Positions 43,178 to 48,369 of a DNA stretch of 64,000 nt are shown here, one piece after another (the first letter of the stretch is position 1; the number at the start of each line of letters is the position of its first letter). Where the stretch lies: NCBI GenBank assembly GCA_021779955.1, contig JAJXZS010000034.1, positions 124,001 through 188,000 of the forward strand, in the 5' to 3' direction. The DNA comes from Chloroflexota bacterium. GTDB lineage: Bacteria; Chloroflexota; Anaerolineae; Anaerolineales; Anaerolineaceae. The notes below the pieces were generated by a model. That model saw nothing but the letters and a program-made list of their open reading frames with translations. It made no database searches and was not told where the DNA came from. The position numbers were made by a program, and so were the translations under genes.

Positions 43178-45451
43178 ATGAAAAGGCCTAGTTTTAATAA
43201 TCTTCCGGATTATTCTATTGACAATCCTGACTTCACCAGGCGAAGGAAGAACCTCACCTGGATATTTCTGCTGGTATCTGCTGCGATCGTTTTTGTGTCT
43301 GAAGTTCTCCTTATCTTCACTCTGAATACTTTCACAAATTTGCCGGATGGCTGGATTATCTTTCTGGACGGCATCTTCCTGGTAGTGATCCTGTACCCCT
43401 TGAACTACCTTTTCATGATTCGTCCGTTGGTGAGGCAATTCGAGGAAAGAACAACGACGAATTCTGCGCTGCTGAAATCGCAGGAGATTTTCGAGCACTT
43501 CTTTTCGGTTTCAGACATCCTGATCGCCTACATGGACAACAAGTTCAACTTCATACGGGTGAACCAGGCTTATGCAGATGCCGATGACCGCAAAGCCGAA
43601 GACTTTATCGGCAAGAATCATTTCGAGCTTTACCCCAGTGATGATAATCTACAAATATTCCAGGCTGTAGTTGACAGCGGAAAACCCTTTACCATCATTG
43701 ATAAACCCTTTGCATATGCAGATGCCCCTGAGCGCGGCCTCAGCTATTGGGATTGGAACCTTTTCCCAATCAAGAATCCCAAAGGTCTGGTCATCGAATT
43801 ATTGATGATCCTCACCAATGTTACCGAGAGGCACAACAACCTTCTGGCGATCGCCGAGAAAGATCGACAATTTCGGGCAGTGTTCGACCAGACCTACCAC
43901 TTCAACTTCCTAACGGATGCCGAAGGGGTGGTTATGATGATCAACCGGTCCGGATTGGACTTCTTGCAGCGTCCTCCGGAAGAATTGTTTGGAAAGCACA
44001 TTTGGGAACTGCCAAATCTTTTACCGGATACCGAGAAGCCACTCAGAGAGTCACTTAATGAAGCGATTGGCGGCAAAGTGGTGCGCAGGCCGTTGAAAGT
44101 TCGTTATTCGAATGGGGAACCCTGCACATTGGAAGCAGCGGCAAAAGCCATTGTCAACGCAGAAGGCAAGGCCGAATTATTCCTCTTCGAAGCGCTGGAT
44201 ATCACACGGATTGTGAACAGTGAAGAAGCGTTAAGAGAGAACGAACTGAAGCTCGAGCAATTGTATAACACTGAAAAGGAAGCACGGAGAAGCGCAGACT
44301 TATTGCGGAATGCAGTACTTGCCCTGGCAAATTCACCGGATATTGACAGCATTTTCGAGAATCTTCTAAATTATGTGCACCAGAAGCGCCCTTACGAACT
44401 TGCGCATATATTCCTTTTCGATGAAGACAATATGCTCAATATCAATCATGTTCGAGGTGAAGAGCTGTTGCCCGAAAACGAAAGATTGCTTGGCAAGTCC
44501 ATAGCTCCTGAAGAGTTATCGACCATACTTGCGCCGCTGTTCGAAAGACACAAGATCATTCATGTCGATGATGCCGGCAAGTATCCTTCGGCCAATGTCT
44601 TGTTTCCTTCATTTCCCCTGGGAAGCTGGATCGCATTTCCTTTGATTGTGGGCACGGAGATGATCGGAGTCTGCGTCTTTGGTCACAGGCAAAAATGCTA
44701 TTTCTCCCCTGAATTTGAGGAATGGACCTATACGATCGTGAACCAATCGGCCATTTCCATTCAAAATCACCTGCTTTTCGAGCAGGTCAGCGAAAGCCGC
44801 GAGCGCCTACAGGCACTTGCCAGGCGGCTGGTGGAAGTTCAGGAAAAGGAACGCCGCTACGTGGCCCAGGAACTGCATGATGAGACAGGTCAGGCATTGG
44901 CTTCGATCAGGGTGGGTCTGATGCTGCTCGAACGCGAGAGTGCAGACTCTGAAGCCGTCGTCAAACGCTGCCATGAGTTGAATGATGTTACCAAAGAGGT
45001 TCTGGAAAATCTGCACCGTCTTTCGATGGATTTGCGTCCTGCAGCTCTCGATCATTTAGGTCTCGTCCCTGCACTTCGCCAGCAGATCGAGATCCTCGGT
45101 GAACAGCATGGTATCGACATGCGCTTCGATACGATTGGCGAAATGGGGCGACTGCCGAGTGGGACAGAAACAGCGATCTACCGTATCGTTCAGGAAGCTC
45201 TTACGAATGTGATCAAACATTCGCATGCCACGCATGTAGACGTTATGTTCGAAAAAAGAAACGCCGACTTGTTGATAGTCGTTGAAGACAATGGCATTGG
45301 TTTTACCCCCAATGTTATGGCAACCGATCATCTGGGTACGATGGGGATGAGCGAGCGTGCTTTATCTGTTGGGGGATCAGTTAGAATCGAGAGCTCGCCT
45401 GGTGAGGGAACCGCAGTATTTCTGGAGGTACCATGCCCATCCGAATCGTAA
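43178..45451 (+). CDS. PAS-PAS-GAF sensor histidine kinase (HisKA_3, NarX/DesK class)
   Basis: A 757-residue membrane kinase. Two transmembrane helices (about 28-50 and 58-83) with a very short outside loop are followed by two PAS domains (about 100-215 and 225-345) and a GAF domain (about 370-530). Next comes a HisKA_3 dimerisation helix with phosphoacceptor H567 in AQELHDETGQAL, then an HATPase domain ending with DNGIGF and the glycine-rich GTMGMSERALSVGG. The sensory input is likely cytosolic, via PAS or GAF ligands. Its 3' end overlaps the response regulator by 19 nt. Confidence 0.93.
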   Translation: MKRPSFNNLPDYSIDNPDFTRRRKNLTWIFLLVSAAIVFVSEVLLIFTLNTFTNLPDGWIIFLDGIFLVVILYPLNYLFMIRPLVRQFEERTTTNSALLKSQEIFEHFFSVSDILIAYMDNKFNFIRVNQAYADADDRKAEDFIGKNHFELYPSDDNLQIFQAVVDSGKPFTIIDKPFAYADAPERGLSYWDWNLFPIKNPKGLVIELLMILTNVTERHNNLLAIAEKDRQFRAVFDQTYHFNFLTDAEGVVMMINRSGLDFLQRPPEELFGKHIWELPNLLPDTEKPLRESLNEAIGGKVVRRPLKVRYSNGEPCTLEAAAKAIVNAEGKAELFLFEALDITRIVNSEEALRENELKLEQLYNTEKEARRSADLLRNAVLALANSPDIDSIFENLLNYVHQKRPYELAHIFLFDEDNMLNINHVRGEELLPENERLLGKSIAPEELSTILAPLFERHKIIHVDDAGKYPSANVLFPSFPLGSWIAFPLIVGTEMIGVCVFGHRQKCYFSPEFEEWTYTIVNQSAISIQNHLLFEQVSESRERLQALARRLVEVQEKERRYVAQELHDETGQALASIRVGLMLLERESADSEAVVKRCHELNDVTKEVLENLHRLSMDLRPAALDHLGLVPALRQQIEILGEQHGIDMRFDTIGEMGRLPSGTETAIYRIVQEALTNVIKHSHATHVDVMFEKRNADLLIVVEDNGIGFTPNVMATDHLGTMGMSERALSVGGSVRIESSPGEGTAVFLEVPCPSES

Positions 45452-46092
45452 TTGCAGATGACCATAGCTTGCTGCGAGCTGGACTGCGCTCATTGCTGAA
45501 CTCAAGCCCCGATATGGAGGTGGTGGGCGAAGCCACCAATGGCGCTGAAGCCGTGAAGCTTGCGCAAGAACTCATGCCAGACATCGTTTTGCTGGATATC
45601 GTCATGCCGGATACCGATGCTTTAGCCACCACCAAAGAGCTGGCAGAAGTATCAAATACGACCAAAGTCATGATGTTGACCATGCACGAAGATACGGCGC
45701 TCATGCAAGAATACCTGCGGGCAGGCGCTTCAGGCTATATCATCAAGCGCGCGGCCGAAACGGAGTTGATCGATGCTATCGTCGCTGTCAACCATGGCAT
45801 TATCTATATTCATCCCTCGCTCATGCACGCGATCATCAATCCCAAACCCAGAATGGAATTCCAATCCGAAGATAAATCCGAATCTCTGACCTTGCGAGAG
45901 ACAGAGATCCTTCGTTATATCGCTGAAGGTCATACCAACCGTCAGATTGCCCAGACGCTGAACATCTCCGTTCGAACAGTTGAATCGCACCGCTCGAACT
46001 TGATGGAAAAGCTTGATCTTCACAGCCGGGTGGAACTTGTGAGGTACGCCAACAAGTTCGGCCTTTTGAATACGAATACCAGCAAAGATTAA
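45433..46092 (+). CDS. NarL/FixJ-type response regulator
   Basis: A 219-residue regulator. The receiver domain has D9-D10, phosphoacceptor D55 (VLLDIVMPD) and K105-region KRAAE; the LuxR-type HTH is LTLRETEILRYIAEGHTNRQIAQTLNISVRTVESHRSNL. It is surely the partner of the overlapping sensor kinase. Likely targets include its own downstream region, where palindromes and repeats occur. Confidence 0.95.
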   Translation: MPIRIVIADDHSLLRAGLRSLLNSSPDMEVVGEATNGAEAVKLAQELMPDIVLLDIVMPDTDALATTKELAEVSNTTKVMMLTMHEDTALMQEYLRAGASGYIIKRAAETELIDAIVAVNHGIIYIHPSLMHAIINPKPRMEFQSEDKSESLTLRETEILRYIAEGHTNRQIAQTLNISVRTVESHRSNLMEKLDLHSRVELVRYANKFGLLNTNTSKD

Positions 46093-46174
46093 TGCTTGTC
46101 TAAACATTTATCCGTACTTTCTACTGAAGAACTGCCAGCATCCCGCAATGTAGTCTCCGTGTTCGCTTCCCTTT

Positions 46175-46201
46175 AAATCCCATCAAAGTACTGTTTTGGA
46201 A
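46175..46201 (+). repeat. 27-nt imperfect direct repeat, copy 1
   Basis: The sequence follows AAATCCCATCAAAGTACTGT and continues TTTGGAA. It matches copy 2 at 46460-46486 in 23 of 27 positions. It lies downstream of the response regulator and just overlaps the hairpin at 46199. Confidence 0.65.
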
Positions 46202-46459
46202 CGATCTGGTTTGTCGTATTCTGTAACCAGATCGTTCATTATTGGTTTATCAGTAGCTAAACTTCTTTGCTCCCCCTAATATCAACTGCGGATTTAGGGG
46301 GGGCAGTGTTTTAACACGAGATTCGATAGCCCGATTTTTCTATCGATCGGATCATAGGGTTCAACTCTTCCGACAACGCTGCTTTTCTGATGTACCGTAA
46401 TTACTACGTAGGGCGATGCTCCTTTTTGTATAGAAAGAAATCAGTATATTGAATCCGTG

Positions 46460-46486
46460 AAATCCCACGAAAATACTGTTTTGAAA
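46460..46486 (+). repeat. 27-nt imperfect direct repeat, copy 2
   Basis: Second copy, 285 nt after the first. Its end (TTGAAA) could act as a -35 element for the secreted-protein gene, which begins 139 nt downstream. Confidence 0.65.
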
Positions 46487-46624
46487 GGCATTGAGATTTG
46501 TTAAGATAGGATTAGAAAGCAGGTGGCCTCGCACGGTCCATCTATTCTGGGCGACAGCAACAGAAACTTTCAGGGAAGCGATTGAGACGGGGGCGTCCGG
46601 CAGTTGCAAGAAGGGAGGGGTAAG

Positions 46625-47026
46625 ATGGGTGATCGGAAAACTGTTATCTTCATCATTGCCCTGCTGCTTGTTTCTTCGATGCTTTTTTCCGCAAGCTACA
46701 CGGTATCTTCAATGCCGGCTGGTGCAGTTACCTTGCAAGATGCGCAGGCATACTTTGGCTCGAATAATGGCGCCAACTTGTTATCCGTTCACGACACCGA
46801 ATTCTTAATGGGTGATGGCTCGCTGAGCGATCAAGGATCAATCTCTGTCGACGCAATCGGTGATAAGGGTTCCATCGATTACACAAATTTGGCTGTGCTT
46901 TTATCAGAACCATCCATTGACATGTTCAACGTGAGCGGGTCGGTTACTGCGGTGAGTTTTGCAGTAACGATCTCGGGTCTTATCCCCGAAATGAGCTTTG
47001 ATGTTCAGGCTGGGCATGCCAACTAG
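46625..47026 (+). CDS. Small secreted or membrane-anchored protein of unknown function
   Basis: 133 residues. After MGDRKT comes a hydrophobic stretch (VIFIIALLLVSSMLFSASYTV) that can be a signal peptide or anchor. The mature part of about 105 residues is polar and acidic, has no cysteines, and contains Gly/Ser/Asp-rich segments (GDGSLSDQGSISVDAIGDKGS). No family recognised. The start at ATG 46625 has GGGAGGGG just upstream, a very strong site; an ATG seven codons earlier overlaps that site. Followed by a strong terminator. Confidence 0.7.
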   Translation: MGDRKTVIFIIALLLVSSMLFSASYTVSSMPAGAVTLQDAQAYFGSNNGANLLSVHDTEFLMGDGSLSDQGSISVDAIGDKGSIDYTNLAVLLSEPSIDMFNVSGSVTAVSFAVTISGLIPEMSFDVQAGHAN

Positions 47027-47156
47027 TCGACAGGTTCATCTCCGGGGCAAAGAGGCGGCAATTCAATTCCGCAATCGGTCGTTCTTTGACTGACGGTAAT
47101 TCCTGACGCGGGAAATCCTTACGGATGATTGCGCCATCAAAAATCCGTAGACAAAC

Positions 47157-47202
47157 AAAACACCTCCCCCGAATTCGTACTGATGGCGGGGGAGGTGTTT
47201 TT
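47157..47202. terminator. Bidirectional rho-independent terminator
   Basis: AAAACACCTCCCCCG and CGGGGGAGGTGTTTT form a 15-bp stem with a 15-nt loop, flanked by A-run and T-run. It separates the secreted-protein gene and the convergent transaldolase gene. Confidence 0.93.
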
Positions 47203-47223
47203 GCATTTGGTTGCTTGCCGCAG

Positions 47224-48369
47224 CTAACCCCTCACGGGCGATTGCATCTGTCTGCGGATCTTTTCCTCAAGCCTGTCCATCAGCTTTTGATACGAAAAGC
47301 TGAACTTTTCAACTCCTTCATCTTCCAGTTCCTGCGTTACCCCATCGATATTGATCTTCAGGTACTCCAGGCTGTCGAGCACCTTGTGCGCATGCTCCAA
47401 ATCGTCTTCGATGCGGGCGGCCGGGTTGCCGTGATCGCGGTAAGCGTCCACCGTCTCTATCGGAACGGTGTTGATGGTGTCAGGGCCGATCAACGGCTCT
47501 ACGTACTTCACATCCGAATAGGCGGGATTCTTGGTGCTCGTGCTTGCCCACAAGACGCGTTGTTTTTGCGCTCCCCTGGCCGCCAGTTTCTGAAAACGCT
47601 CACTCTCGACCGATTTCTTGAACGTCTCATAAGCCAGCTTCGCGCTTGCGATTGCCACTTCACCCTGCAATGAGCGGGCCAGCGCCTCGGTTTCCTTGTT
47701 TTGATGGGCCGAAAGGTTCGCCAGCAATGGGTCGACGAGCACATCGATTCGGCTGAGGAAGAAGCTTGCTACCGATGAGACGCGCGCCAGGGGTAACCGC
47801 ATGGTAGCGCGCTCTTCGAGGCCCGCTATGTAAGCCTCGATGACTTCCTCATACCGGGGTATTCCAAACAGCAGGGTTATGTTGATATTCACTCCCTCGC
47901 TGATCATTTGCTGAATCGCCGGCAGGCCTTGCGTCGTCCCGGGGATCTTGACGTAGATATTGGGCCGGTCCACCGTCTGCCACAAGCGACGGGCTTCCTT
48001 GATCGTCGATTCGGTATCGGTTGCCAGGTAGGGGTTCACCTCGATGCTGACGAAACCGTCTGCGCCGTTCGTGCGGTCAAAAACTGGCCTGAACTGATCG
48101 GCAGCCTGCTGAATATCGCTGATGGTCAGCGCGTCGTAGATTTCCGTCGAGGACTTGCCCTTATGCACGAGGTCTTCGATCTCGGCATTATAATCGCGGG
48201 TTTCGGCGATCGCCTTTTCGAAGATGGTCGGATTCGAAGTCATACCGCTAACGCCATCCTCTTCGATCCAGCGTTTGAGTTGCCCGGAGGTGATCACGTT
48301 GCGGCTGATAAAATCCATCCAGATGCTTTGTCCAAAACTCTCCAGCTTCTTTAGAGGATTTTCCATCAT
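47224..48369 (-). CDS. tal: Transaldolase
   Basis: A 381-residue transaldolase of the long bacterial subfamily. Active-site blocks are DGVSGMTSNPTIFEKAI, GFVSIEVNP and the Schiff-base lysine in NIYVKIPGT. The later QKQRVLWASTSTKNPAYSDV is also typical. It moves a dihydroxyacetone unit in the pentose phosphate pathway. ATG 48369 is chosen because AAAGGAG is 8 nt upstream; a GTG three codons earlier is too near. It lies 86 nt after the AIF-like gene on the same strand, with a small inverted repeat (TGAATA/TATTCA) at 48433-48448 between them. Confidence 0.93.
   Translation of the reverse strand: MMENPLKKLESFGQSIWMDFISRNVITSGQLKRWIEEDGVSGMTSNPTIFEKAIAETRDYNAEIEDLVHKGKSSTEIYDALTISDIQQAADQFRPVFDRTNGADGFVSIEVNPYLATDTESTIKEARRLWQTVDRPNIYVKIPGTTQGLPAIQQMISEGVNINITLLFGIPRYEEVIEAYIAGLEERATMRLPLARVSSVASFFLSRIDVLVDPLLANLSAHQNKETEALARSLQGEVAIASAKLAYETFKKSVESERFQKLAARGAQKQRVLWASTSTKNPAYSDVKYVEPLIGPDTINTVPIETVDAYRDHGNPAARIEDDLEHAHKVLDSLEYLKINIDGVTQELEDEGVEKFSFSYQKLMDRLEEKIRRQMQSPVRG

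What the first reader, a model, noticed from the sequence alone, without database searches (positions are those of the whole stretch)
46093..47026. Repeat- and hairpin-rich gap plus an unknown secreted protein after a two-component system
The 532-nt gap has two hairpins, a CTACGTAG palindrome and two copies of a 27-nt sequence (23/27 identical, 285 nt apart). The next gene encodes a 133-residue secreted protein with an unusually strong ribosome binding site and terminator. The layout suggests the regulator binds the repeats and controls the secreted protein, or that a small RNA is made from the gap.
Basis: partly seen in the sequence, partly recalled or inferred. Interest (0 to 1): 0.5.

Follow-up and report, generated by a model that had tools for sequence, protein, structure and literature searches.

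The report
Twin regulator-controlled promoters before secreted gene
The odd repeats after a two-component regulator gene are two copies of a promoter-like control unit that recurs beside related regulators in distant bacteria of the same class, so the regulator probably controls the neighbouring small secreted protein.

Summary
In detail: the 27-nt pair (23/27, 285 nt apart) exceeds 300 shuffles and occurs only here in its genome. CTACGTAG alone is chance-level, the RBS ordinary, the terminator shared with the convergent gene.

Each repeat belongs to a ~110-nt unit: a CCGTA-N5-TACGG palindrome, 77-79 nt later AAATCC-N8-TACTG against a weak -35, a 17-nt spacer and a -10. The window has two (P1 46112-46222, P2 46395-46507). 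I count the unit in 18 other genomes, often directly behind a regulator of this subfamily or before DUF772-like, Fe-S or exported-protein genes. A matrix of 18 sites from seven other families ranks the two window copies first and second in 64 kb. Regulators beside the unit fall in one supported branch (16 of its 19 rows).

Best reading: the response regulator binds these sites and activates tandem promoters for the 133-aa exported protein. The DUF772-like gene that follows the unit in near orthologs is undetected here; the protein may be a shortened relative of giant exported proteins found at this position elsewhere. Binding and transcription are inferred; a simple sigma-70 scan finds no promoter. 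Six literature searches showed no description.

The parts
43178..45451 (+). histidine kinase (PAS, GAF, HisKA_3, HATPase_c)
   Evidence: Pfam
45433..46092 (+). LuxR/NarL-type response regulator (receiver + GerE), the proposed activator
   Evidence: Pfam; tree
46112..46126 (+). P1 palindrome CCGTA-N5-TACTG (inverted TACKG half-sites)
46175..46199 (+). P1 proximal site AAATCC-N8-TACTG and weak -35 (TTTTGG); first copy of the 27-nt repeat
46199..46237 (.). 13-bp dyad centred on the P1 -10 (hairpin 1); role open
46217..46222 (+). P1 -10-like box TATTCT, 17 nt behind the -35
46272..46301 (+). hairpin 2, CCCCCTAA/TTAGGGGG; role unknown
   Evidence: read; fold
46395..46409 (+). P2 palindrome CCGTA-N5-TACGT (overlaps CTACGTAG)
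46460..46484 (+). P2 proximal site AAATCC-N8-TACTG and weak -35 (TTTTGA); second copy of the 27-nt repeat
46502..46507 (+). P2 -10-like box TAAGAT, 117 nt upstream of the ORF
46625..47026 (+). 133-aa protein with a signal-peptide-like start, no family match
47157..47201 (.). terminator-like 15-bp stem shared with the convergent gene
   Evidence: sequence

Best explanation
The gap holds two tandem copies of a regulated promoter. Each has an upstream inverted pair of TACKG half-sites (CCGTA-N5-TACKG) centred roughly 110 bp before the expected start of transcription, and a proximal site, AAATCC-N8-TACTG, directly against a weak -35, then a 17-nt spacer and a -10. The response regulator encoded just upstream, phosphorylated by its kinase, binds these sites and helps RNA polymerase start. 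P2 then drives the 133-aa exported protein, and P1 would read through P2 into it. In near orthologs the unit stands before a DUF772-like gene followed by a giant exported protein; here the DUF772-like gene is missing and the second unit stands before the short exported protein, which may descend from the start of the giant protein. Shown: sequence, geometry, recurrence, co-occurrence with this regulator subfamily. Inferred: binding, activation rather than repression, start sites, gene loss.
For: Same geometry behind orthologous regulators in G186 and G103 (RR 58% and 55% identical, kinases 43-46% over almost full length). A pattern from these copies found G107, where a DUF772-like gene follows. 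A sequence model of 8 copies gave 6 places at E<=1e-5 in 147 family genomes: 5 known and a new one in G186 before a second DUF772-like gene and a second giant protein. In 396 class genomes it gave 22 places at E<=0.01; of the 18 not in the model, 16 have the palindrome, 11 the full proximal geometry, 10 a regulator of this family ending 2-102 nt upstream (regulators rescored). A matrix without any site from the window's family scores the window copies 31.0 and 15.2, next best -4.3, best of 20 shuffles 4.2. In a tree of 41 regulators the 16 beside a unit lie in a 19-row branch with 99/97 support; 3 label changes against 12.9 in shuffles, 0 of 500 as low.
Against: The consensus sigma-70 scan found no promoter in 45900-47300 (1.8 expected by chance). 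The palindrome alone is not significant in the window: two matches with at most one mismatch, 0.62 expected, 12 of 100 shuffles have two or more. The pattern had 7 matches and its reversed control 13 in the same 147 genomes, so position, not count, is the evidence. The proximal block of P2 scores only -1.9 by the outside matrix; P2 rests on its palindrome, spacing and likeness to P1. The 18 sites of that matrix were collected with a model holding both window copies. In several genomes the palindrome is also a terminator stem. G056 has an orthologous regulator and a DUF772-like gene but no recognisable unit. No binding or transcript data exist.
Confidence: 0.75

Rival explanations
1. The gap makes a regulatory or small RNA: P1 starts a transcript that folds into the hairpins between P1 and P2, with no protein product of its own.
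For: No ORF of 50 aa or more lies on the + strand between P1 and P2; the gap folds better than shuffles (z -4.16).
Against: No Rfam match at the gathering threshold and only sub-threshold ones in this locus, G186 and G103. What is conserved elsewhere is promoter-like sequence at fixed spacing. The 13-bp dyad is absent from 5 of 9 copies tested.
Confidence: 0.1
2. The unit is a remnant: the genes it served were lost and neither copy works now.
For: DUF772-like genes stand behind the unit in three family genomes and none is detected in this genome. The window -35 boxes are weak and P2's proximal block scores low with the outside matrix. The 133-aa protein has no detectable relatives in 101 genomes.
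Against: Both copies keep palindrome, proximal site and -10 in register while the DNA between them has diverged. The ORF behind P2 scores as coding. No DUF772 remnant in 46060-47230 by tblastn (best E 0.24).
Confidence: 0.08
3. The palindromes are only transcription terminators, and the proximal site belongs to another regulator or to a constitutive promoter.
For: In G065, G055, G287b and G402 the palindrome is the core of a longer stem followed by a T-run.
Against: The core letters are kept, not just the pairing, and the same TACKG half-site recurs at the -35. The window copies have no T-run behind them. Co-occurrence with one regulator branch.
Confidence: 0.07

Closest known systems
[quoted passage not shown]
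   Same: HisKA_3 kinase, receiver-GerE regulator, half-sites that begin with TAC near the promoter (site quoted in a passage of PMC4886647).
   Different: Half-site here is TACKG/TACGC, not TACYYMT; the upstream pair is CCGTA-N5-TACGG, with GTA on the left and TAC on the right, whereas the NarL site quoted (TACTCCAATGTAGGTA) has TAC outermost. Signal unknown.
   Same: Orthologous or related kinase and regulator (RR 49-58% identical), an exported product downstream, and in G186, G103 and G065 the same unit behind the regulator.
   Different: The window has two units in tandem, no DUF772-like gene and a 133-aa protein instead of a giant one; G056 lacks a recognisable unit. The giant protein of G065 was not scanned for domains.

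Membership tests
LuxR/NarL-type response regulator with HisKA_3 kinase | Receiver domain plus GerE (LuxR) helix-turn-helix; adjacent HisKA_3/HATPase kinase | tested here: met
   Pfam above cut-offs
LuxR/NarL-type response regulator with HisKA_3 kinase | Regulator binds its promoter sites and changes expression | not testable with these tools
   needs footprinting and reporter assays
NarL/NarP regulon | TACYYMT heptamers at target promoters | tested here: not met
   sites read TACTG, TACGG, TACGC; heptamer from a passage of PMC4886647
Unit conserved beside this regulator subfamily (defined here) | CGTA-N5-TAC palindrome, 76-80 nt to TAC, AAATCC 14 nt before it, TAnnnT at N19 behind the 9-mer | tested here: met
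   both window copies
Sigma-70 promoter | TTGACA/TATAAT-like hexamers 16-18 nt apart, at least 9 of 12 matches | tested here: not met
   one search found none at that threshold; class copies read TTCACA-N17-TATACT, the window copies are weaker
Known structured RNA | Match to an Rfam family at its gathering score | tested here: not met
   0 matches in the window

The most novel reading that the evidence does not exclude
An undescribed, class-wide NarL-like regulon uses its own operator-promoter layout (CCGTA-N5-TACGG upstream; AAATCCG-N7-TACGC against the -35) to control giant exported multicopper-oxidase proteins, cohesin-domain proteins and Fe-S respiratory subunits, with a stand-alone DUF772-like protein, probably a domesticated transposase domain, as a recurrent partner. 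In this genome it has shrunk to one locus that drives a short relic of the giant protein.
Probability: 0.5. Interest if true: 0.6.

Novelty: new member of a known kind. Interest (0 to 1): 0.5.

Why it matters
It offers a concrete, testable operator for a regulator subfamily of a bacterial class known mostly from environmental genomes, and ties it to exported and respiratory redox proteins. It turns a remark about repeats near a regulator into a motif that can be sought in any genome of the class. The recurrent stand-alone DUF772-like protein is a candidate domesticated transposase domain of unknown role.

Tried and rejected
Relatives of the 133-aa protein: none besides itself in 101 genomes, none in phages or viral contigs; the one genome-contig hit (Acinetobacter) lies in a TsaC/Sua5-like protein (name recalled) and is taken as chance. 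NCBIfam gave only a hit at E 7.1. Structure prediction without an alignment is useless (pLDDT 42); no fold search was run.

A 28-nt match (89%) of the gap to G065, inside the regulator gene beside its best kinase match, suggested a decayed regulator copy reading REAIETGASG; Pfam found no receiver domain in that frame, so I dropped it, though the co-location is odd.

DNA similarity of gap plus ORF to 101 genomes: best foreign match E 0.006, in the terminator.

Errors of mine: misread loci whose regulator lies on the minus strand; redone, where 19 of 30 loci gave a usable regulator end (4 of 19 have the palindrome with at most one mismatch). One search built its regulator profile with the window row probably empty (a variable picked an alignment row), and the nhmmer step ran on the wrong sequence and printed nothing; one search stopped on the same fault. 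replace them; the positions of regulators beside the units still come.

Rows not counted as copies: G403 and G557 (no palindrome), G183 (partial), G107:C194 and G105:C196 (full-length at E 0.14 and 0.12; behind another regulator), G132 and G013 (no regulator or DUF772-like gene seen). G326 was kept although its palindrome lies 112 nt upstream. G269 was added from the matrix scan.

Full report
What is there. The window lies in contig 12 of an unnamed 2.8-Mb genome. A histidine kinase gene (43178-45451) overlaps a LuxR/NarL-type response regulator gene (45433-46092). A 532-nt gap follows, then a 133-codon ORF with a signal-peptide-like start (46625-47026), a terminator at 47157-47201 and a convergent transaldolase-like gene (name from reading the ORF, no family call). 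The repeat is beyond chance: 23/27 against at most 20/27 in 300 shuffles, and one of 239 window tiles. CTACGTAG alone is not (2 palindromes, 2.09 expected). The RBS is ordinary (one of 15 of 39 start sites with a match of 5 or more).

The repeat is local as an exact sequence: 2 places in its own genome with up to 3 mismatches, and only in this genome among 16 genus genomes with up to 2. The kinase has no match at E<=1e-60 in the 15 other genus members, and the 133-aa protein no match in 100 other genomes.

It is part of a larger unit. Regulator relatives were sought in 147 family genomes (27 with E<=1e-45). The DNA behind the two closest, G186 and G103, shows the same arrangement. In register: a CCGTA-N5-TACGG-like palindrome; 76-80 nt downstream a TAC box followed by a -35-like stretch; AAATCC or AAATAC exactly 14 nt before that TAC; TAnnnT exactly 19 nt after the 9-mer that begins with TAC. 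The window has this twice (palindromes 46112 and 46395, TAC 46189 and 46474, -10 46217 and 46502). G107, G065 and G486 show it too, and G425 in a weaker form (AATTCC, and the last box off by one). Within the 64 kb the only two palindrome matches with at most one mismatch are these, but 12 of 100 shuffles also have two.

Tests on data not used to build it. (a) A pattern from the window, G186 and G103 copies, run on 147 family genomes, gave 7 matches, four of them known. Of the other three, G107 lies directly before a DUF772-like gene while G132 and G013 show no such context. The reversed control pattern gave 13 matches, so the count proves nothing; the place of the G107 match does. (b) A sequence model of 8 copies gave six places at E<=1e-5 in the 147 genomes: five in the model and one new, in G186, directly before a second DUF772-like gene and a second giant protein. 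(c) In 396 genomes of the class, drawn from a larger group, it gave 22 places at E<=0.01, four of them in the model. Of the other 18, 16 carry CGTA-N5-TAC, 11 carry the full proximal geometry, 10 have a regulator of this family ending 2-102 nt upstream, and one has a DUF772-like gene downstream; G403 and G557 have none of these. (d) A matrix from the 16 good ones plus G486 and G425, seven families, none of them the window's, scored the window copies 31.0 and 15.2, the two best positions on both strands; third was -4.3, the reversed window's best -2.0, the best of 20 shuffles 4.2. The sites were collected with a model that held the window copies, so the choice of sites is not fully independent; no window letter is in the matrix. 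P2's proximal block alone scores -1.9. Among other loci (1.32 Mb) the best score outside the loci of the matrix was 33.6, in G269, another locus with a DUF772-like gene (sequence); the next was 10.4.

By inspection I count 26 copies in 19 genomes: two here, two in G186, one each in G103, G107, G065, G486, G425 and G269, and the 16 of test (c).

Co-occurrence with the regulator. In a tree of 41 regulators the 16 beside a unit fall with three others (G055, G174, G056) in one branch, support 99/97; the label needs 3 changes against a mean of 12.9 in 500 shuffles, none as low. The rows were not a random sample: those without a unit all come from the window's family. G055 has the palindrome as a terminator stem. 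Stand-alone DUF772-like genes occur in 4 of 147 family genomes, G103, G107, G186 (two) and G056; a fifth match, G102, lies in a 561-aa frame. All of them but the one in G056 have the unit in front. The label DUF772 rests on the Pfam hit of the G056 protein (E 8.5e-7); the G186 protein had no Pfam match and is linked to it by 27% identity over 271 residues (E 4e-29).

How it most likely works. TACKG is shared by the palindrome arms and by the site at the -35, as expected of one binding protein, and TAC begins the NarL heptamer TACYYMT (passage of PMC4886647). Class copies read TTCACA-N17-TATACT, a good promoter; the window copies have weak -35 hexamers (TTTTGG, TTTTGA), and the plain promoter scan misses them, which would suit activator-dependent promoters (inference). 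I propose that the phosphorylated regulator activates P1 and P2. P2's -10 ends 117 nt before the ATG. A dyad centred on the -10 is present in P1, G186a, G103 and G107 and absent in the other five copies tested; the first three stand directly behind the regulator gene, G107 at a contig end. It may end the kinase-regulator transcript (inference).

The exported protein. No family matches. Its first 46 residues align without a gap to the first 46 of the giant exported protein of G103 (28% identity, MPAG and YFG at the same places; 30.4 bits, against at most 24.6 in 300 controls with the signal peptide kept and the rest shuffled; eight proteins were compared). The part behind the signal peptide alone is not significant (18.9 bits; shuffles reach 22.7). 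Descent from the giant protein is therefore suggestive, helped by the matching place in the locus.

Genes behind the unit elsewhere: DUF772-like proteins followed by large exported proteins, one of which (G186b) has a multicopper-oxidase domain; 4Fe-4S proteins (G296, G326, G350); cohesin-domain proteins (G393b, G413b); receiver-domain proteins (G463, G562, G480). I scanned only part of them for domains (6 genes directly or nearly behind a unit plus the G186b giant and a neighbouring cytochrome peroxidase; one of the eight proteins, that of G287b, had no match). The signal is unknown.

Literature. Six searches of the open library: the listings shown describe no such unit. For the motif strings 452 papers held at least one term; only 10 were listed, and these held AAAATCCG only. 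I read passages of PMC8199190 and PMC4886647 and nothing else beyond listings. Most subscription papers are not in that library, so absence in print is not established.

Noticed in passing
L054:4368-5213, L248:3890-4723, L092:203-1045, L058:4774-5664, L059:4792-5607 (minus strand): A stand-alone ~280-aa protein related to the DUF772 transposase domain recurs between the regulator and a giant exported protein in other genomes; possibly a domesticated transposase domain.
   Followed up: partly
window 46573-46600: 28-nt match (89%) to the regulator gene beside the best kinase match in G065, reading REAIETGASG in frame; probably chance.
   Followed up: partly
L252:5978-8722 (G184:C51): A decayed version of the G186-type locus: shortened kinase and regulator frames, then pieces of the exported-protein and cytochrome-peroxidase genes.
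   Followed up: no
L248:3831 and surroundings (G186:C18:133749-133865): G186 carries a second unit, DUF772-like gene and giant protein 8 kb behind the first set, with a cytochrome c peroxidase gene between.
   Followed up: partly
L250:2084-2199 (G107:C194) and L251 (G105:C196): Full-length but weak model hits (E 0.14, 0.12) behind a different LuxR-type regulator; perhaps a related site of a sister system.
   Followed up: no
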